Source: an uncultured Campylobacter sp. (lineage in GTDB: Bacteria; Campylobacterota; Campylobacteria; Campylobacterales; Campylobacteraceae). From it: a stretch of 7,602 bases of DNA. The translations under genes and the position numbers were made by a program. The notes under the pieces were generated by a model that had not been told where the DNA came from, did no database searches, and saw only the letters and a list, made by a program, of their open reading frames with translations. The first letter of the stretch is position 1; each line of letters starts with the position of its first letter. Shown one piece after another: positions 1-7,602 of the stretch. The DNA lies in NCBI RefSeq assembly GCF_937890585.1, contig NZ_CALACG010000271.1, positions 1-7,602 on the forward strand. Reading direction: 5' to 3'.

Positions 1-1398
1 GTTGTAGCAGTTTTATTTATAGGTTATGACTTCACTGAAGGCTTAGAAGATCTTCAAAAGACAATGGCACAAATGAAGCTAGGCGAGCGTGGATACTTCT
101 CAATCTTTAATACAAAGACAAATGTCTATGACATCCACCCAAAACTAGCTGGCAAAGCACCAGAAGGTCAGCTAAAAGATATAGTTGATGACATAGTAAA
201 AACTAAAGAAGGTGTCAAACTCATAAATACTGACGGAGTTGAGAGAGTGGTTGCTTACGAGCCATTTGACAAGCTTAACTGGATCGTGCTTGGCTCAGCT
301 GTTACTGATGACTTCTTAACACCTCAAAAAGTAGTTAGCAAAAACTTCATCATCGCAAGCATTATAGTTACTTTACTTCTTATTATAGTTTCTATATTAC
401 TACTTAAAAAGATGGTTGCAAATCCTATTGATAGATTAGGAGCAAATTTAAATGCTATAACATCTGACTTTACACTTAAAATCCCAATCTACGGCAAAGA
501 TGAGATAGCTAAAATAAGCAATGATATAAATAACTTCATAGAGCGCATAAGAGTGCTTATAAGCGACACTAAAAACCTTTCAAGCGAAAATAGCTCAGTT
601 GCAAACGAGCTAAGCTCTACCTCTCTTCAAACAGGCAAACGCGTAGAAGAATCAACCCAGATCGTCGAAGAGACAAATCAAAGATGCAAGTCTATGCAAG
701 AAAGCATGAAAGAGTCTCTATCTATAGCTCAAGCTGGTAAAGACGACCTTCAAAAGGCAAGCACTCATATAAAAACAGCAACTGACGCTATCAGATCTCT
801 ATCATCTCAGATAGTAGACTCTGCAAACGTAGAGAGCCAAATGGCTGGCAAGATCGAGCAGCTTAGCCGTGACGCTGAGCAGGTAAAATCAGTGCTTGTG
901 GTTATCAACGATATCGCTGATCAGACAAATTTACTTGCTCTTAACGCTGCCATCGAAGCAGCACGCGCAGGTGAGCATGGACGTGGCTTTGCAGTCGTTG
1001 CTGACGAGGTTAGACAGCTAGCTGAAAGAACTCAAAAGTCTCTAACAGAGATAAATGCAACTATCAACGTTATCGTTCAAGCGATCAACGATAGCAGCGA
1101 GCAAATGGGTATCAACTCTAAACAAATTCAAGAGCTAACCCATGTGGCAAGCGACGTTGAAAAGACGATAAATGATATGAGCGCAACGATGAATAATGCC
1201 ATAGCGATGTCTGATAAGACTATGCAAGACTACATCGCAACTGGTAAGAATGTAAATGAGATCATGGATGGCATCTCAGAGATCAATCAAATTTCATCTG
1301 AAAATGCTAGAAGCGTAGAAGAGATAGCTTCTGCAGCTGAACATCTAAACAAGATGACAGACGCGCTAAACACAAAACTAAGTGTCTTTAGAACTTAA
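1..1398 (+). CDS. Methyl-accepting chemotaxis protein, 5' end missing
   Basis: This is a transmembrane chemoreceptor that would sense a ligand outside the membrane and control the CheA kinase through CheW. The reading frame is open from base 1, so the gene starts before the window; the ATG at 64 lies inside the sensor domain and is not the start. About 465 residues are visible. Residues 1 to about 105 are the end of a periplasmic Cache-type sensor ([30 protein letters not shown]). One hydrophobic helix lies at about 116-135, followed by a HAMP region to about 190 and a long coiled-coil signalling domain. The hairpin tip is unmistakable at about 302-351, with the core [19 protein letters not shown] followed by [18 protein letters not shown]. 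The protein ends LSVFRT without a CheR-tethering pentapeptide. The ligand cannot be deduced. The gene points toward the purine operon and is separated from it by an intrinsic terminator. Family assignment is very secure. Confidence 0.96.
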
Positions 1399-1425
1399 GT
1401 TTTTATCTCTTAAATTTAATGTTTT

Positions 1426-1451
1426 AGGTCTAGCTTTGCCTAGACCTTTTT
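1426..1451 (+). terminator. Rho-independent terminator of the chemoreceptor gene
   Basis: A perfect 8-bp stem, AGGTCTAG (1426-1433) with CTAGACCT (1440-1447), encloses the 6-nt loop CTTTGC and runs into five T residues at 1447-1451. It starts 28 nt after the chemoreceptor stop codon. This is a classic intrinsic terminator on the + strand, and it protects the convergent plsC operon from read-through. Confidence 0.88.
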
Positions 1452-1533
1452 AAAATTAAACCCAAAATTTCAAATACTTTTTTATAAAATTTAAACATAT
1501 AAAATAAAATTTACGGATAAAAATAGAGCAGAG

Positions 1534-1560
1534 GCTTTGCAAATTTAGATATTGCAAAGC
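1534..1560 (-). terminator. Stem-loop after plsC, candidate operon terminator
   Basis: A perfect 9-bp inverted repeat, GCTTTGCAA (1534-1542) and TTGCAAAGC (1552-1560), surrounds a 9-nt loop and begins 8 nt past the plsC stop codon on the minus strand. Position and stem strength fit the end of the minus-strand operon. The run that follows on that strand (CTCTGCTCTATTTTTA) has no T-tract directly against the stem, so intrinsic termination may be weak, or the hairpin may mainly protect the 3' end of the transcript. Confidence 0.5.
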
Positions 1561-1567
1561 AGAAGAG

Positions 1568-2236
1568 TTATTTTCTATTTTCGTCTAGGACTTTTTGCAT
1601 GCTCTCTCTTGTATCCTCCAGCCAGTCCTCTTTAGAAGTATCGACTAGATCAAGACAAAAGAGCTTGATGTCAGCCTTTTCAAAGCTAAATTCTTTCACT
1701 TTTATCGCATCGCTTCCAACGATCACGATAGGCTGAACCTTTAAATTTAGCTTTTCAACTAGCAACTTCGCACCACCTTTAAATGGTAGTAGCTCTTTGG
1801 TTTGAGACCTTGTACCTTCTGGAAATATCGCTAAAACGCGGCCGTTTTCAACTCTATCTTTTGCTTCTTTTAAAAGCTTTATGAGCGAGTGCTTGTTCTC
1901 GCGCTCGACTGCTATCATCTTTGGAAGGCTCAAAATTTTACCGATGATAGGAATTTTTCCGATCTGCGCCTTTGCGATCCAGCAAAGATTTTTAGGGTGC
2001 ACCTCTTCAAGCACGATGATGTCAAGCATACTTTGATGATTTATCAGTAAGATATTTGCCTCATCTTTAAACTCTCCAACCACCTCAAGCGTATAGCCAC
2101 CAAAAAATCTCTGGGCTCTGCCCCAAACTTTTCTAATAGGTCTATTTTTCGAGTTAAAAAGCCACATAAAAAAGACCACGACAAAAACGCTAAGAACAAA
2201 TGTGATAGAGAAGAAAATAGCTCTAATTTTTGACAA
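1568..2236 (-). CDS. plsC: 1-acyl-sn-glycerol-3-phosphate acyltransferase (PlsC family)
   Basis: It transfers a fatty acyl group to the sn-2 position of lysophosphatidic acid, giving phosphatidic acid, the precursor of membrane phospholipids; it acts at the inner membrane. The protein has 222 residues, normal for bacterial PlsC. A hydrophobic N-terminal anchor spans about 5-27. The catalytic HX4D motif is NHQSMLD (H67 and D72), motif II is around the arginine of AVERENKHS (R112), motif III is FPEGTRS at 138-144, and the motif IV proline lies in VQPIVIVG (P169). The chosen start is TTG at 2236: the upstream in-frame codons soon reach a TGA, and AAGGA lies 5 nt before the TTG. The start lies 14 nt inside the end of the SH3-domain gene, which suggests translational coupling. 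It is the last gene of the minus-strand operon. In C. jejuni the plsC homologue follows the same neighbour. Other family members acylate other substrates, so exact substrate preference is inferred. Confidence 0.92.
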   Translation of the reverse strand: MSKIRAIFFSITFVLSVFVVVFFMWLFNSKNRPIRKVWGRAQRFFGGYTLEVVGEFKDEANILLINHQSMLDIIVLEEVHPKNLCWIAKAQIGKIPIIGKILSLPKMIAVERENKHSLIKLLKEAKDRVENGRVLAIFPEGTRSQTKELLPFKGGAKLLVEKLNLKVQPIVIVGSDAIKVKEFSFEKADIKLFCLDLVDTSKEDWLEDTRESMQKVLDENRK

Positions 2237-3530
2237 GGTCGTCCTTTTTCACCCAGCCGATCTTTCCATCTTGAAATAAAATTTTCGAGTAGTCGCCCTT
2301 TTTGTCTAAAATTTCAACACTTTCATTTTTACGAGATGTGTAAAAAATGGTCGAATTTTTAGTTGGCAGGATAGTAACGCTAACATCAGGCTTTAGCACA
2401 GCTTTACCAAAAGGATTGTAAGTGTAAATTCCAAGCGCGATAAAGACCGCCGCCACGAAAAAGTAGCTAAATTTCCTGCGCCAAATGGCTAGCAAGATAA
2501 GGATTGCCACACAAGAGTAGATCGTGATATCTTTGTAGGTGCTAAATTCGCTTTGTTTTGGATTTAGCCCGATCTGCGTGCTAACCTCGTCCTCTTCGAC
2601 GCTCACAGGCAGTGAAAAGCTCTCAAATTTAGCTTTTTTTAGGTTGTAGTAGTTAAAGTCAAGCGTCTTTTTGTTTGGCTTAAATACTGCAAAATAGTAT
2701 GCACTTTGCGAGTTGAAGTCGCCATTTATCGTATCTACGCCTTGCTTTAGGATCGTTTTGTTTTCAATATTAAAGGCGCTTAGATCGACATTGTTGCCGT
2801 AAATTTCAACGACCATGATGTTGTTTATATCATCAAATTTAGTCGTTTTAAATTTCTTTACCTCAAGGTTATCAGCGACGATGTGGTTGTAGTTTTCGTC
2901 ACTTCTAAGCTCTTTTAGCTTTGGTAAAAAGATATTTATGTTTGAGTTTTGATAGTTCTCGCCATTTCTTTTTAGATCCAAGCTAACACGTAAAGTCTTT
3001 GCGTCAATGCTCGTTGCTTCAAGGTAGAAAGTGCCGATGTATTTGTTTTCTTCACCTTTTACCCATTGAAAATTCTTCTTATTTAACCATTTGATATTTG
3101 TCTCATCAAGCTGTGTCTCAAATTCAAACTCAAGATCACTTTGTGTATCAGCTACGATCTCAACGCTAAAAATTTCTCCTACTACGACATTTTTAGGGAT
3201 ATTTGTCGCTTTTAAAAGGAGGTCTTTTATTTTAATCTTGTCATAGACTTGATTGTCAGGGACGCTGATGTCTGGTTCGTTTGTCGGTACGATATTTCGC
3301 ATCTGCTCTGGAGTGATACGCTCTGGCTGTGGGGCGATAGAGCGTGGAGAGACGAGTTTTCTTGATATATCTTCTTCACTTGGAGTCTTTGTTTGCGGCT
3401 TTGATGCCTGGCTATTTACAAATTTATCCTCTCTTGCCTCATCCATCATGTCAAAAACGCTGACTTCATCAGTGTTTGCGGCAAATAAATTTAGCGCGAG
3501 TAGGGCGATAAAAAGTGTTCGTTTTACCAA
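2223..3530 (-). CDS. Putative periplasmic/membrane protein with C-terminal bacterial SH3 domain
   Basis: Function is unknown. The 435-residue protein starts with a signal peptide or anchor (basic VKR, then a hydrophobic stretch to about residue 16, with a possible cleavage near LFAAN). It continues with a Ser/Pro/Thr-rich low-complexity stretch (about 40-95) and a beta-rich region of roughly 100-310 resembling surface or BatD-like Ig folds. Two hydrophobic helices at about 334-350 and 354-371 are separated by the basic turn RRKFS. The last 55 residues look like a bacterial SH3 domain (VSVTILPTKNSTIFYTS, VEILDKKGDYSKILF, GKIGWVKKDDLV). I infer that the middle region is periplasmic; the side on which the SH3 domain lies depends on whether the signal is cleaved. 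The start is TTG at 3530, overlapping the purQ stop by 7 nt, with AAAAGGG just upstream; no in-frame ATG occurs before the signal sequence. It sits where C. jejuni has the periplasmic protein Cj0515. SH3 domains of this type often bind peptidoglycan, but nothing here proves it. Confidence 0.82.
   Translation of the reverse strand: MVKRTLFIALLALNLFAANTDEVSVFDMMDEAREDKFVNSQASKPQTKTPSEEDISRKLVSPRSIAPQPERITPEQMRNIVPTNEPDISVPDNQVYDKIKIKDLLLKATNIPKNVVVGEIFSVEIVADTQSDLEFEFETQLDETNIKWLNKKNFQWVKGEENKYIGTFYLEATSIDAKTLRVSLDLKRNGENYQNSNINIFLPKLKELRSDENYNHIVADNLEVKKFKTTKFDDINNIMVVEIYGNNVDLSAFNIENKTILKQGVDTINGDFNSQSAYYFAVFKPNKKTLDFNYYNLKKAKFESFSLPVSVEEDEVSTQIGLNPKQSEFSTYKDITIYSCVAILILLAIWRRKFSYFFVAAVFIALGIYTYNPFGKAVLKPDVSVTILPTKNSTIFYTSRKNESVEILDKKGDYSKILFQDGKIGWVKKDDLVKN
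2242..2246 (-). promoter_or_regulatory. Ribosome binding site supporting the TTG start of plsC
   Basis: AAGGA on the minus strand ends 5 nt before the TTG at 2236, inside the last codons of the upstream SH3-domain gene. It is the main argument for the unusual start codon. Confidence 0.6.
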
Positions 3531-4189
3531 ACTAGCCCTTTTAACATCTTCATACCATCATCTGTGCCTAAAATTTTCTCGCAAGCGCGCTCTGGGTGAG
3601 GCATAAGACCAAAGATCTTTTTGCTCTCATCGCAAATCCCAGCTATACTATCAACTGAGCCATTTGGATTTATCTCATTGCCGTGGCTGTCGCAGTACTT
3701 TAGCAAGACTTGCTCGTTATCATATAGGCTTTTTAGCGTATTTTCATCTGTGTAGTAGTTGCCCTCTCCATGAGCGATAGGGATATTTACTACTTCGTTT
3801 TTAGCTAAATTTGCTAGGAATTTATTGTTATTTGAGATTACTTTTAGGTGGTGGTATTTTGAGACAAAATTTAAATTTTCATTTCTTCTCATCGCGCCTT
3901 TTAAAAGTCCAAGCTCAAGAAGCATCTGAAAGCCATTGCAAATTCCTAAAATGTAGCCGCCTTTTTTCGCATGCTCTTTTACAGCCTGCATCGCTGGGCT
4001 AAATTTAGCTATCGCAGCCGTTCTTAGGTAGTCGCCGTAGCTAAAACCACCAGGCAAAACGACTAGATCAGCATCGATCTTATCTTCTTTGTGCCAGATG
4101 ATCTGCGTTTGGCAGCCAAGTAGCCCAAAGGCGTGAGCTGTGTCTTCTTCGCAGTTTGTGCCAGGAAAAAGTATGATCGCTACTTTCAT
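3524..4189 (-). CDS. purQ: Phosphoribosylformylglycinamidine synthase subunit PurQ (glutaminase)
   Basis: PurQ is the class I glutamine amidotransferase subunit of FGAM synthetase. It releases ammonia from glutamine for PurL, which converts FGAR to FGAM in step four of purine synthesis, in the cytoplasm. The 221-residue length is normal for the stand-alone form. The catalytic triad is visible: the nucleophile C84 in GICNGFQML, and H198 and E200 in MPHPERA. Other family signatures are FPGTNCEEDTAHAF at the N-terminus, LPGGFSYGDYLR (about 45-56) and the IAHGEGNYY segment near 138-146. The ATG start overlaps the purS stop as ATGA, a coupled arrangement that fits production of the two small subunits in step. 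No purL is visible in this window. Identification is essentially certain. Confidence 0.98.
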   Translation of the reverse strand: MKVAIILFPGTNCEEDTAHAFGLLGCQTQIIWHKEDKIDADLVVLPGGFSYGDYLRTAAIAKFSPAMQAVKEHAKKGGYILGICNGFQMLLELGLLKGAMRRNENLNFVSKYHHLKVISNNNKFLANLAKNEVVNIPIAHGEGNYYTDENTLKSLYDNEQVLLKYCDSHGNEINPNGSVDSIAGICDESKKIFGLMPHPERACEKILGTDDGMKMLKGLVW

Positions 4190-4422
4190 AGCACGATCTC
4201 GTAGTCTTCGATGACGGTATTTGCTAGAAGCTCTTCACACATCACTTTTAGCTGCTCTTTTGCTTTGTTTTTATCGCTCTCGTCGATGTCTAAAACGATT
4301 TGTTTGCCTATCCTGACATTTGAAACACCGCTAAATCCAAGCGAATTTAGCGCGTGTTCTACTGCCTTACCAGCAGGGTCAAGGACCCCACTTCTTAATG
4401 CTATATTTACGACAGCTTTCAT
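4186..4422 (-). CDS. purS: Phosphoribosylformylglycinamidine synthase subunit PurS
   Basis: PurS is the small structural subunit that bridges PurQ and PurL in the multi-subunit FGAM synthetase of bacteria that lack the large fused PurL. The 78-residue length is typical. It begins with a beta strand (MKAVVNIALRSGVLDPAGKAVEHAL), then the conserved LGFSGVSNVRIGKQIVLDI and a C-terminal helix and strand with CEELLANTVIEDYEI. The start is ATG with AAGGA 5 nt upstream; that ribosome site overlaps the purC stop codon across an 8-nt gap. Its stop overlaps the purQ start (ATGA). Context and sequence agree fully. Confidence 0.97.
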   Translation of the reverse strand: MKAVVNIALRSGVLDPAGKAVEHALNSLGFSGVSNVRIGKQIVLDIDESDKNKAKEQLKVMCEELLANTVIEDYEIVL

Positions 4423-4430
4423 CTTTGTCC

Positions 4431-5141
4431 TTAAGAAAGAATTCTTCTTAAAACTTCTTCGTAAGCTACTTTTACGCTACCAAGGTCTTGTCTAAATCTA
4501 TCTTTGTCAAGTTTTTCGTTTGTTGTCGCATCCCAAAATCTGCAGCTATCAGGGCTTATCTCGTCAGCTAAGATGATGTTGCCATCTTTGTCGATACCAA
4601 ATTCGACTTTGAAATCAACTAGTTTTAAATTTCTCTCTGCAAAGAATTTAAATAAGATAGAGTTAATCTCTCTTGCTGTGTGTCTTAGGGTTTGAAGATC
4701 TTTTTCGCTCTTTACTAGACCCATGATGATGCAGTGCTCGTCAGTAACTAGCGGATCGTGCAAATCGTCGTTTTTGTAGTAGAACTCAACAAGTGTAAAA
4801 GGTAGAACTGTGCCTTCTTTTATGCCAAGTCTTTTGCTAAGTGAGCCAGTTGCGATATTTCTCACAACAACTTCAAGAGGTATGATCTCGCATTTTTTGA
4901 CCACTTGCTCAGTGTCGCTGATGGTCTCAACAAGGTCAGTGACGATACCTTTGCTCTCTAGCAGTTTAAAAAGCTGAGTAGAGATTTTGTTATTTAGTGC
5001 GCCTTTGCCAGCTTCGTTGCCTCTTTTTTGAGCATCAAATGCTGTTAGATCGTCTTTAAATTCAGCCACAAGTAGATTTGGATCGTCTGTGGCGTACATT
5101 TTCTTGCCTTTTCCCTCGTAGATAAGCTCTCTTTTTTGCAT
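4431..5141 (-). CDS. purC: Phosphoribosylaminoimidazole-succinocarboxamide (SAICAR) synthase
   Basis: PurC joins aspartate to CAIR using ATP, giving SAICAR, in the eighth step of de novo purine synthesis; it is cytoplasmic. The protein is 236 residues, the usual bacterial length. Visible signatures are the ATP-binding start [13 protein letters not shown] (8-20), the [13 protein letters not shown] segment (28-40), [16 protein letters not shown] (92-107), LVDFKVEFG (174-182) and the substrate-site motif [14 protein letters not shown] (191-204). The start is ATG with a strong AAAGGAGA ribosome site upstream. The gene begins 16 nt after the protease reading frame ends and is followed by purS after 8 nt. 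The normal operon promoter is not visible: it would lie upstream of the genuine ctpA start, which has been replaced by foreign sequence. Confidence 0.98.
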
Positions 5142-5157
5142 GTTGTTCTCCTTTAGA

Positions 5158-6342
5158 TTATTGTTGTTTTATCTTTAAAATTTTGATCGTATCAATCGCT
5201 GTTTTTAACTGAATATCCTCATCGACTTTTTTCTGTGTGATTATATTTTTATCATCTTTTGCTTCAGTTTTATTGCCTTCGCTTGTTGGATTTATCTTGT
5301 TTAGCTCGCTCTTTAGGTGTGCTTTTAGTTCGCTCTCTTTGATGCTAAATGCACTATCATCGCTTTGCGGCACTTTGCCAGGATGCACGACTACATCAGG
5401 TGTTACGCCAACAGCTTGGATAGTTCTGCCACTTGGTAAGTAGTATCTTGCAATGGTTAGTCTTAGCGCTTCTGTATCATCTATTGGTAAGATCACCTGA
5501 ACGCTACCTTTACCAAATGTGTTTTCGCCGATTATCACCGCACGCTTATGATCTTGCAATGAACCACTGACGATCTCGCTAGCGCTTGCACTTCCGCCAT
5601 TTACAAGGACAACAAGTGGGAGTTTTGATAAGGTTTTGCTAGCGCTTGCTTTATACTCTACATTTTCAGATGCATCACGACCCTTTTGAGATACGATGAT
5701 GCCGTTATCTACGAAAAGATCCACTAGATCGACAGCTTGATTTAAAAGACCGCCAGGGTTGTTTCTAAGATCAAGTATGATGCCATTTGCTTTTGGATGC
5801 TCTTTGATAGCATCTTTGACCTTTGTAACGACGTTTTTGTCAAAATTTGTGACGCGTATATAAAGGATGTTTTCATTTTCTATCATTTTTGCATAGACAG
5901 ACTCAACCTTTATAAGATCTCTTATGATCTTTACGTCAAATGGCTTTTGCTCGCCTTTTCGCAAAATTGTAATTGTTATCGGAGTTTTTGGCTTGCCGCG
6001 CATCTTATTTACGGCTTCATCTATCGTTGTGCCGATAGTTGAGTTGCCATCGATCCTTAAAATGATATCGCCTGCTTTTATGCCTGCTTTATCAGCTGGA
6101 GTGTCCTCGATAGGCGAGATAACGGTTAGTGCGCTATCTTTCATGCCAACTGTTATGCCAAGTCCGCCAAATTCTCCGCTTGTTTGCACCTGCATATCTT
6201 TATATGCTTTTTCATTTAAAAAGCTTGAGTGAGCATCTAAATTTTGCATCAAACCAGCGATGGCTTTGTCAATTATCTCTTTAAATTTAATGTCATCAAC
6301 GTAGTATTTTTCAACAGTTGAGATGGTTTTTGTAAGTTTTGA
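5158..6342 (-). pseudogene. ctpA: C-terminal processing protease (S41), 5' end replaced
   Basis: The Campylobacter part of the fused frame is an S41-family protease that normally works in the periplasm, cutting proteins near their C-termini. With the fused ORF numbered from its ATG, the part begins around 137 with [19 protein letters not shown] domain spans about 188-275 ([11 protein letters not shown] to the strand before [13 protein letters not shown]). The protease core follows, with [17 protein letters not shown], then [13 protein letters not shown] holding the probable nucleophile S387, and TFGKGSVQ holding K412. The 25-residue Ser-Lys spacing fits known C-terminal processing proteases. 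The charged tail ends in KILKIKQQ. About 394 residues remain; homologues are around 435-445 and begin with a signal sequence. It is followed 16 nt later by purC, as in C. jejuni. I label it pseudogene only because its start is missing here; in the source organism it is probably intact. Confidence 0.8.
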
Positions 6343-6744
6343 AAGTGCTTCAAGTTTTGAATTATCACCTGTAAGCATAACTGTCAAACAATCTTTTGCT
6401 ACATCAACGATAGTGGCTCTAAAAATATCACAAAGGGCAGCTATATCCTGTCTTTGTGAGGCATTAGCCTTTACTTTTATCATTACAATTTCACGGAAAA
6501 CACTCTTGCCTTCCTCTAAAACCTTGATATCTCTTACATCTTCAAGTTTTCTAAGCTGTTTTACTATCTGATCAAGTGTGTCTTCATCACCAATAGAAAC
6601 AACAGTCATTCTTGAAAAACGTGGGTCAGCAGTTTGTCCAACAGTGAGAGAGTCAATATTATAACCTCTCCTTGAAAAAAGACCTGACACACGACTTAAA
6701 ACACCTACAGAATTGTCTACAATAAGTGAAAATACTCGTCTCAT
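5158..6744 (-). CDS. Chimeric ORF: IlvN N-terminal part fused in frame to CtpA S41 protease
   Basis: This single uninterrupted frame of 528 codons joins two unrelated proteins. Residues 1 to about 130 match the small regulatory subunit of acetolactate synthase; residues from about 137 on match a carboxy-terminal processing protease. The start is ATG at 6744, preceded by GGGAGG with a 4-nt gap. An in-frame TTG at 6756 sits immediately before that ribosome site (TTGGGAGG) and is not the start. The fusion lacks the last 30 or so residues expected of IlvN and the roughly 45 N-terminal residues of CtpA, including the signal peptide. A periplasmic protease without an export signal behind a cytoplasmic regulatory domain makes no evident sense, so I regard the fusion as an assembly chimera, or else as a recombination product. 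The open frame itself is certain; that a cell makes this protein is doubtful. Confidence 0.6.
6334..6360. other. Junction between Campylobacter-like and Firmicutes-like DNA, with 9-bp direct repeat
   Basis: The transition from protease to IlvN coding lies in this 27-bp stretch, which encodes SKLEALSKL on the minus strand. The 9-mer AAGTTTTGA occurs at 6334-6342 and again at 6352-6360, separated by AAGTGCTTC. IlvN proteins commonly have a K-hydrophobic-E-A sequence here, and Campylobacter CtpA has EALSKLTKT, so both parents plausibly share these bases. No insertion sequence, integrase or inverted repeat is present at the point. Confidence 0.75.
6352..6744 (-). pseudogene. ilvN: Acetolactate synthase small (regulatory) subunit, 3' end missing
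   Basis: IlvN (IlvH) binds the catalytic subunit IlvB, activates it and confers feedback inhibition by valine; the complex makes acetolactate for branched-chain amino acid synthesis in the cytoplasm. The N-terminal ACT domain is clear at residues 1-75: [34 protein letters not shown], then a strand containing SRMTVV and the [15 protein letters not shown] end. The second domain begins [12 protein letters not shown] and continues to [16 protein letters not shown], where the normal family continues for another 30 or so residues but this frame switches to protease. It has its own promoter and strong ribosome site. No ilvB is visible. The sequence type ([15 protein letters not shown]) and strong GGGAGG site fit Firmicutes. 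It is probably intact in its source genome. Confidence 0.82.
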
Positions 6745-6748
6745 TTTA

Positions 6749-6754
6749 CCTCCC
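6749..6754 (-). promoter_or_regulatory. Strong ribosome binding site of ilvN
   Basis: GGGAGG on the minus strand stands 4 nt before the ATG at 6744. It fixes the start and rules out the TTG at 6756, which touches the same ribosome site. Confidence 0.85.
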
Positions 6755-6824
6755 AATATTAAAAAGTATTAGTATATAGTTTTGAATAAAGACAAAACAA
6801 TAAAATTATATTGGTTCGCCATTT

Positions 6825-6852
6825 ACTATAGCACCATTATAATAAATGTCAA
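6825..6852 (-). promoter_or_regulatory. Vegetative (sigma-A/sigma-70) promoter of ilvN
   Basis: On the minus strand a perfect -35 TTGACA (6852-6847) is followed after 16 nt by TATAGT (6830-6825), which matches the -10 consensus at five of six positions and has an extended -10 TG (TGCTATAGT). Transcription would start near 6818 and give a leader of about 70 nt before ilvN. The leader is too short for a T-box and shows no obvious attenuator. It separates ilvN from the upstream sortase as an independent unit. Confidence 0.75.
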
Positions 6853-6869
6853 TTTGTTATATTATATAT

Positions 6870-6894
6870 ATGATATAACTAAATGTTATATCAT
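6870..6894. repeat. AT-rich perfect inverted repeat between sortase and ilvN
   Basis: ATGATATAAC (6870-6879) and GTTATATCAT (6885-6894) form a perfect 10-bp inverted repeat around TAAAT. It lies 18 nt beyond the sortase stop and 17 nt upstream of the ilvN -35 box. It could be a weak terminator for the sortase gene, though no T-run follows, or a protein-binding site above the promoter. The AT content makes a chance repeat quite possible. Confidence 0.45.
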
Positions 6895-6912
6895 TAAACT
6901 ATAGCCATAAGT

Positions 6913-7602
6913 TTATCTGTGATCCTCACCAAAATCAATAGTAGAAATATCATATCTTTGTGGTTCGTCATCATCATTTAATTCATACGCATATAGTATC
7001 GGTCTTGTGTTATCTCCCTCGTAAGAGCAGGTAATAAATGACCATATTTTATCTATACCTGTAGTAGGTATATCTCTATAGCTACATTCCTTAGTCATTC
7101 TATCAACATAGTCATGAAAATAATTCATATCATCAAAATAAGTCTGCCTTCTTTCAGGTGCAGCATCAGAGTAAAGTGCCGCAAAAGTTTTCAACCTGTA
7201 TGTCTTTTGAGGTGTATAAATATATATCATTCTATGTTCTTTAAAGAAATTTTCATCTTTAAATTTTGTGATATCGGTAAACATAGTACCATCTTTCATA
7301 TGATGTCCATAGATAATATTATTAAGTGTTGAGAAATCTGTATTACTATATCCATCCATATAGACAGAGTAATAAGATTCTTTATGGTTAATATCACGAT
7401 GTAGATAATAGTCTATATCATATTCTTTCCATAATACAGGATAATCAATTACAGTTCCGGGAATATACACCCATGCGATAACATCCGGATTTGTAGCCTT
7501 CAACGAATCAAAATCAATTTTCCTTGTATAATTTTCATCAGTCTCATAAGCTTTTGTAGGCGGCTCGGTTGTAGTTTCTTCTTGAGTGGTTGTAGTTTCA
7601 AG
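6913..7602 (-). CDS. Class B sortase, 5' end beyond the window
   Basis: Sortases are membrane-anchored transpeptidases of Gram-positive bacteria that cut a C-terminal sorting motif and attach the protein to peptidoglycan or to pilin subunits. The frame is open to the window edge; the TTG at 7503 is an internal leucine (DSLKATNPDV), so it is not the start. The visible 229 residues begin with a Thr/Glu/Pro-rich linker (about 1-22) leading to KIDFDSLKATNPDVIAWVYI and PGTVIDYPV, the typical start of a SrtB fold. Counting from that leucine as 1, the catalytic residues are H67 in NNIIYGHHMKDG, C159 in ITCSYEGDN and R167 in NTRPILYAYEL. The region between, including an extra helix (NYFHDYVDRM), fits class B rather than A. 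The N-terminal membrane anchor lies outside the window. No substrate gene with a sorting signal is visible, so the recognised motif is unknown. The gene is foreign to Campylobacter. Confidence 0.93.
   Translation of the reverse strand, partial: LETTTTQEETTTEPPTKAYETDENYTRKIDFDSLKATNPDVIAWVYIPGTVIDYPVLWKEYDIDYYLHRDINHKESYYSVYMDGYSNTDFSTLNNIIYGHHMKDGTMFTDITKFKDENFFKEHRMIYIYTPQKTYRLKTFAALYSDAAPERRQTYFDDMNYFHDYVDRMTKECSYRDIPTTGIDKIWSFITCSYEGDNTRPILYAYELNDDDEPQRYDISTIDFGEDHR

What the first reader, a model, noticed from the sequence alone, without database searches (positions are those of the whole stretch)
6334..6360. In-frame fusion of a Firmicutes IlvN to a Campylobacter CtpA protease
One open frame begins as a cytoplasmic acetolactate synthase subunit and ends as a periplasmic S41 protease that has lost its signal peptide. 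Both partners are truncated exactly at the switch, and each side has neighbours that fit its own lineage: sortase B on one, the purine operon on the other. I know of no natural IlvN-CtpA architecture and it has no obvious functional sense. The most likely explanation is a chimeric contig or misassembly; a true recombination would be remarkable.
Basis: partly seen in the sequence, partly recalled or inferred. Interest (0 to 1): 0.7.

Follow-up and report, generated by a model that had tools for sequence, protein, structure and literature searches.

The report
Two oral bacteria spliced by assembly
The odd fused gene is where a Campylobacter concisus-like stretch of DNA meets a Lachnoanaerobaculum-like stretch at a 20-letter word found in both lineages, so it is most likely a sequence-assembly error and not a real protein.

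Summary
One frame (5158-6756, minus strand, 532 aa) starts as IlvN and ends as an S41 protease. Window 1-6357 is one collinear Campylobacter concisus-like locus: 92% over 1-6357 to L059, 93% over 286-6357 to L001. From 6334 on it is a Lachnoanaerobaculum locus, 82-84% to 6 of 6 genomes. The two matches overlap at a word, 6338-6357, identical in 11 of 22 Campylobacter-side and 3 of 6 Lachnoanaerobaculum genomes laid in register. It reads KLEALS in the same frame in both genes, which explains the open frame. Of 54 distinct genomes searched, 53 match one half only and one matches neither. None of 19 long IlvN-containing proteins is joined to an S41 protease. About 27 chance words of 20 bases are expected per such genome pair. 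An unplaced contig and a join the size of a small assembly k-mer (recalled) point to a false de Bruijn-graph join. No reads were available, so a laboratory chimera or a real recombinant is not strictly excluded.

The parts
1..6357 (.). Campylobacter concisus-like segment: chemoreceptor (MCP) gene (1-1398 +), then on the minus strand acyltransferase, SH3-like protein, purQ, purS, purC and the 3' part of an S41 protease gene
6334..7602 (.). Lachnoanaerobaculum-like segment: 5' part of ilvN and, upstream of it, a sortase B-like gene
   Evidence: Collinear blastn matches from 6334 onward at 82-84% to 6 of 6 genomes of the genus; sortase
6338..6357 (.). 20-base word shared by both lineages; the switch lies somewhere inside it
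   Evidence: Exact in 11 of 22 Campylobacter-side and 3 of 6 Lachnoanaerobaculum genomes laid in register, so in 33 of 132 pairs (30 at exactly 20 bases, 3 at 22 because of one Campylobacter-side genome)
5158..6756 (-). Fused open reading frame, 532 aa: IlvN residues 1-139 run into residues 37-435 of the S41 protease, the KLEALS residues being common to both
5158..6357 (-). S41 (CtpA-type) protease without its first 36 residues
   Evidence: 399 of the 435 residues of the intact gene in L059; 97% nucleotide identity to the best of 48 genus genomes
6338..6756 (-). ilvN without its last 30 codons
   Evidence: Intact 169-aa gene in L013, followed by a gene recognised by eye as ilvC
6913..7602 (-). 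Sortase B-like gene, cut by the window end
   Evidence: TIGR03064 148 bits, just under its cut-off of 153.75; Pfam Sortase 32.6 bits, above its cut-off of 26.6; matching 277-aa ORF in L013

Best explanation
The window is two unrelated genome segments, Campylobacter concisus-like (1-6357) and Lachnoanaerobaculum-like (6334-7602), that meet at a 20-base word (6338-6357) carried by both lineages, and the join was most likely made by a short-word assembler rather than in a cell. Shown: the two origins, the collinearity on each side, the shared word, and the absence of the join from the 54 genomes searched. Inferred: both species were in one sample, probably oral. At low coverage the assembler entered the shared word from one genome and left it into the other. 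The open frame survives because the word encodes the same peptide, KLEALS, in the same frame in both genes. The fused protein would then not exist.
For: Each side matches only its own lineage and stops at the same word. A 501-base query across the join matched one half only in 10 of 10 genomes (4 at 6100-6357, 6 at 6334-6600). All 6 Lachnoanaerobaculum genomes (the same six as) match only from 6334 on; two of them also have a second weak match inside the sortase gene. Of 48 genomes of the Campylobacter-side genus (four of them also), 47 match, none past 6370, and one has no match. Exact word identity and frame. Intact parents. About 27 chance matches of 20 bases or more are expected for two such genomes (analytic). 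The window lies in no held genome. A 42-base pattern across the join is absent from the viral contigs, and the window has no near match in plasmids or phages. 0 of 19 long IlvN-bearing proteins carries S41 or PDZ, and 18 of the 19 stand for one member sequence. One of them (P0122) is joined to a Na/Pi cotransporter at NKLEAFL, a peptide that 5 of 20 native transporter loci have at that place.
Against: No reads, coverage or assembler record were available, so the step that made the join is inferred. In the sampled 400 kb by 400 kb only three shared words of 20 bases or more were found (20, 24 and 33 bases), and they look like tRNA genes (recalled judgement), so a chance protein-coding word of 20 bases was not itself seen. 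For a second long IlvN protein (P0128, EAL domain) 20 native relatives share only the residues around FIP at the join, not a long peptide. Of the 19 long IlvN proteins, 8 have partners from the same pathway (IlvC 4, IlvB-like 3, 2-isopropylmalate synthase 1) and may be real, so that list is not a clean set of artefacts.
Confidence: 0.85

Rival explanations
1. A chimera made in the laboratory: template switching during PCR or whole-genome amplification, primed by the 20-base word, gave chimeric molecules that were then sequenced and assembled.
For: The same shared word would serve as the switch point. A blunt ligation chimera would need no such word, so the word argues for a word-dependent process (inference).
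Against: It needs the same rare chimera to dominate the reads at that place, whereas an assembler makes the same join without any chimeric molecule (inference). Not testable here.
Confidence: 0.11
2. A real recombinant: illegitimate crossover at about 20 bases of microhomology in a living cell joined the two genomes in frame.
For: The frame is open through the join. Lachnoanaerobaculum records carry oral names (orale, gingivalis, oral taxon 107), and C. concisus is an oral species by recall, so the two could meet.
Against: Absent from the 54 distinct genomes searched. Both genes lose parts, the protease its hydrophobic N-terminus. No mobile-element gene was named among the eight window proteins scanned. 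The open frame is explained by the shared peptide.
Confidence: 0.03
3. A natural multi-domain family, IlvN fused to an S41 protease.
For: None beyond the open frame.
Against: 0 of 19 long IlvN proteins has an S41 or PDZ domain. The 120 listed hits to the whole frame (of 8000 scored) cover at most 80% of it and list only PDZ, S41 and CtpB_N domains.
Confidence: 0.01

Closest known systems
Interspecies chimeric contig of a short-read metagenome assembly (described for example in PMC8171044, passages seen)
   Same: Non-overlapping parts of one contig match different species; the parts meet at a word present in both genomes
   Different: Happens to leave one open frame across the join, because the shared word encodes the same peptide in both genes
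IlvN, acetolactate synthase small subunit (NF008864, TIGR00119)
   Same: Residues 5-149 score 171 and 154 bits, above both cut-offs of 119 and 56.9
   Different: Last 30 of 169 residues missing
C-terminal processing protease (TIGR00225, Pfam PF03572)
   Same: 366 bits against a cut-off of 219; PDZ and S41 domains present
   Different: First 36 of 435 residues, including the hydrophobic N-terminus, missing

Membership tests
Interspecies chimeric contig | Two adjoining parts match different species, each collinear up to the switch | tested here: met
   1-6357 Campylobacter concisus-like, 6334-7602 Lachnoanaerobaculum
Interspecies chimeric contig | The switch lies in a word present in both genomes | tested here: met
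   6338-6357, exact in 33 of 132 genome pairs (30 at 20 bases, 3 at 22); the other 99 pairs have shorter runs because of strain differences
Interspecies chimeric contig | The join is absent from genomes of both lineages | tested here: met
   0 of 54 distinct genomes (10; the same 6 again; 48, four of them shared)
Interspecies chimeric contig | No reads span the switch, or coverage steps there | not testable with these tools
   No reads held
Natural IlvN-S41 fusion protein | The same architecture in other genomes | tested here: not met
   0 of 19 long IlvN proteins; none among the 120 listed of 8000 scored hits to the whole frame
Natural IlvN-S41 fusion protein | Both domains complete | tested here: not met
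   ALS_ss_C ends at profile position 61 of 74; 30 and 36 residues lost
IlvN (acetolactate synthase small subunit) | Score above the curated cut-off | tested here: met
   NF008864 and TIGR00119
IlvN (acetolactate synthase small subunit) | Complete C-terminal domain | tested here: not met
CtpA-type S41 protease | PDZ and S41 domains | tested here: met
CtpA-type S41 protease | N-terminal export signal | tested here: not met
   The hydrophobic N-terminus of the intact gene is absent from the window; no signal-peptide program was run

The most novel reading that the evidence does not exclude
A living oral bacterium carries a real crossover between Campylobacter and Lachnoanaerobaculum chromosomes at 20 bases of microhomology and makes a cytoplasmic protease fused to the amino-acid-sensing ACT domain of IlvN.
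Probability: 0.03. Interest if true: 0.65.

Novelty: not a real feature. Interest (0 to 1): 0.07.

Why it matters
As biology it matters little. As a caution it is useful: a chimeric join can leave a clean open frame when both genes carry the same short peptide-coding word, so an intact reading frame across a domain switch is not by itself evidence of a real fusion. Protein collections built from metagenomes hold other single-sequence proteins with an IlvN part and an unrelated partner (9 of 19). If the join were real, it would be an inter-phylum chromosomal recombination.

Tried and rejected
A second join at the MCP end: four draft contigs (L001, L002, L003, L007) end in or near the MCP gene, and three genomes (L056, L058, L060) show no alignment longer than 250 bases before 1568 (shorter ones were not printed). 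But L059 matches 1-6357 in one collinear alignment, and L057, L061, L063 and L065 match from position 5, so there is no second chimera.

A mobile element or defence role: no PADLOC family for the two window proteins scanned, no near match of the window in plasmids or phages, and the 42-base join pattern absent from viral contigs.

Chance of the word: analytic expectation 27 per genome pair. In a 400 kb by 400 kb sample, maximal shared words numbered 244, 68, 27, 6 and 1 for 16 to 20 bases, plus one of 24 and one of 33; the three of 20 or more look like tRNA genes (letters, recalled judgement).

A general rule that IlvN chimeras join at a shared KLEA peptide: supported for P0122/P0123, where 5 of 20 native transporter loci (the 20 best) read NKLEAFL at the join. 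Not supported for P0128, where 20 native EAL loci (the best) share only residues around FIP. The other 16 long IlvN proteins were read but not tested for this.

The register table used 22 of the 47 Campylobacter-side genomes with a match. The other 25 were left out because no locus was held for them; they include nearly all genomes under 89% identity.

Literature: (acetolactate synthase small subunit, fusion protein, carboxyl-terminal processing protease; 15 papers with at least two of the three terms, 10 titles seen) listed nothing on such a fusion. This is one search of an open-licence library.

Full report
What is there. On the minus strand, 5158-6756 is one open frame of 532 codons. Its first part scores as acetolactate synthase small subunit (NF008864, 171 bits, residues 5-149) and its last part as C-terminal processing peptidase (TIGR00225, 366 bits, residues 152-470). 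The IlvN C-terminal Pfam domain stops at profile position 61 of 74.

Where each side comes from. A scan of one genome per species with the fused protein returned 17 loci in two sets. Nine match the protease part: four named Campylobacter concisus at 99-100% identity over residues 132-532, two C. jejuni at 69-70%, and three more distant ones. Two of these (L006, L009) align from residues 107 and 112 on, so they reach nominally into the IlvN part, as gapped extensions at 57-59% identity in the best segment. Eight match the IlvN part: five Lachnoanaerobaculum at 91-92%, Lachnospiraceae oral taxon 107 at 94% over residues 5-141, and two distant Firmicutes MAGs at 45% and 35%. 6334-7602 matches L010, L011 and L013 to its end, and L012, L014 and L015 to within 24 bases of it, at 82-84%. 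Beyond those limits the loci held give no match in the other half at E 1e-10. The Lachnoanaerobaculum source is not one of the six genomes held, since the best identity is 84%.

The join. Laid in register, 22 Campylobacter-side genomes (of the 47 with a match) and 6 Lachnoanaerobaculum genomes share an exact word at 6338-6357 in 30 of 132 pairs, extended to 6359 in 3 more; in the other 99 pairs strain differences shorten the run. Just left of the word, base 6337 is T in the window and in 12 of the 22 Campylobacter-side rows (C in the other 10), but A or G in 6 of 6 Lachnoanaerobaculum rows. Just right of it, base 6358 is T in the window and in 6 of 6 Lachnoanaerobaculum rows, but C in 21 of 22 Campylobacter-side rows. 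So the window leaves one lineage and enters the other within 20 to 22 bases. The word encodes KLEALS in both parents, in the same frame: [13 protein letters not shown] in the protease, [14 protein letters not shown] in IlvN. The intact frame across the join therefore needs no further explanation.

What is lost. The intact protease in L059 is 435 aa and begins MNKFTRSFALKITGALLISSVAVNALFA; the window lacks its first 36 residues. The intact IlvN in L013 is 169 aa and is followed by a gene recognised by eye as ilvC; the window lacks its last 30 residues and everything downstream.

Is the join found elsewhere? Not where I could look. Ten genomes matched one half only. The six Lachnoanaerobaculum genomes of that set, searched again with a longer query, match from 6334 on only. 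Of 48 genomes of the Campylobacter-side genus, four of them also, 47 match and none past 6370; one has no match. That makes 54 distinct genomes. The whole-frame protein search listed 120 of 8000 scored proteins, covering at most 80% of the query and carrying only PDZ, S41 and CtpB_N domains. A search with the IlvN part alone, restricted by length to about 293-931 aa, gave 19 proteins among 425 candidates. By their listed domains, 9 have partners outside the pathway (haloacid dehalogenase, Na/Pi cotransporter twice, glucanotransferase, DXP reductoisomerase, EAL, Nramp, a P-type ATPase, a histidine kinase), 8 have partners of the same pathway (IlvC 4, IlvB-like 3, 2-isopropylmalate synthase 1), and 2 show no other domain. 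None has an S41 protease or PDZ domain. 18 of the 19 stand for one member sequence and 18 of the 19 for one contig.

How likely is such a word? With the sampled base compositions, about 27 exact words of 20 bases or more are expected between genomes of 2.03 and 2.92 Mb. In the sample the counts fall roughly two- to six-fold per added base (244, 68, 27, 6 and 1 for 16 to 20). No chance protein-coding word of 20 bases was itself seen in the sample; the three words of 20 or more look like tRNA genes (recalled judgement). Twenty to twenty-two bases is the scale of the smallest k used by common iterative short-read assemblers (21 in MEGAHIT and metaSPAdes, recalled, not from a call).

Mechanism. 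The best reading is a false path through a de Bruijn graph. Where two low-coverage genomes share a word and the true continuations are missing or weaker, the assembler leaves the word into the wrong genome. That contigs joining different species are a common product of metagenome assembly is reported in PMC8171044 (passages seen; by its BLAST criterion about 60% of the 500 longest contigs for Velvet-type assemblers and Megahit and 87% for metaSPAdes in the CAMI low-complexity set, and 12.5-18% of total contig length in the table shown for another set) and mentioned in PMC9795473 (passages). That both genera were in one oral sample is inferred: record titles name oral and gingival Lachnoanaerobaculum, C. 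concisus as an oral species is recalled, and one search lists papers holding both names (listing only).

What remains open. Without reads, an amplification chimera cannot be told from an assembler join, and a real crossover at microhomology cannot be strictly excluded. I put the three at 0.85, 0.11 and 0.03, and a natural IlvN-S41 family at 0.01.

Side result. A second long IlvN protein, P0122 (near-identical P0123), is joined to a Na/Pi cotransporter at NKLEAFL, and 5 of the 20 best native Lachnospiraceae transporter loci read NKLEAFL exactly there. For P0128 (EAL), 20 native loci share only residues around FIP. So the shared-peptide explanation of in-frame joins holds in the window and in one of two others tested.

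Noticed in passing
window 6334-7602: The Lachnoanaerobaculum-like part is at most 84% identical to the six genomes of the genus held, so it comes from a species or lineage not among them.
   Followed up: partly
window 1-1567: The chemoreceptor gene next to the acyltransferase varies between strains: four draft contigs end in or near it, and three genomes (L056, L058, L060, on contigs of about 2 Mb) show no alignment over 250 bases to it at this place.
   Followed up: partly
proteins P0121-P0139: Of 19 long proteins with an IlvN part, 18 are single sequences and 9 have partners outside the pathway; P0122, P0123, P0128 and P0132 break IlvN in the same KLEA-like helix as the window.
   Followed up: partly
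window 2223-3530, minus strand: A 435-aa protein with a weak SH3_3 match (26.9 bits, just under the cut-off of 27) and no NCBIfam match lies between purQ and an acyltransferase gene.
   Followed up: no
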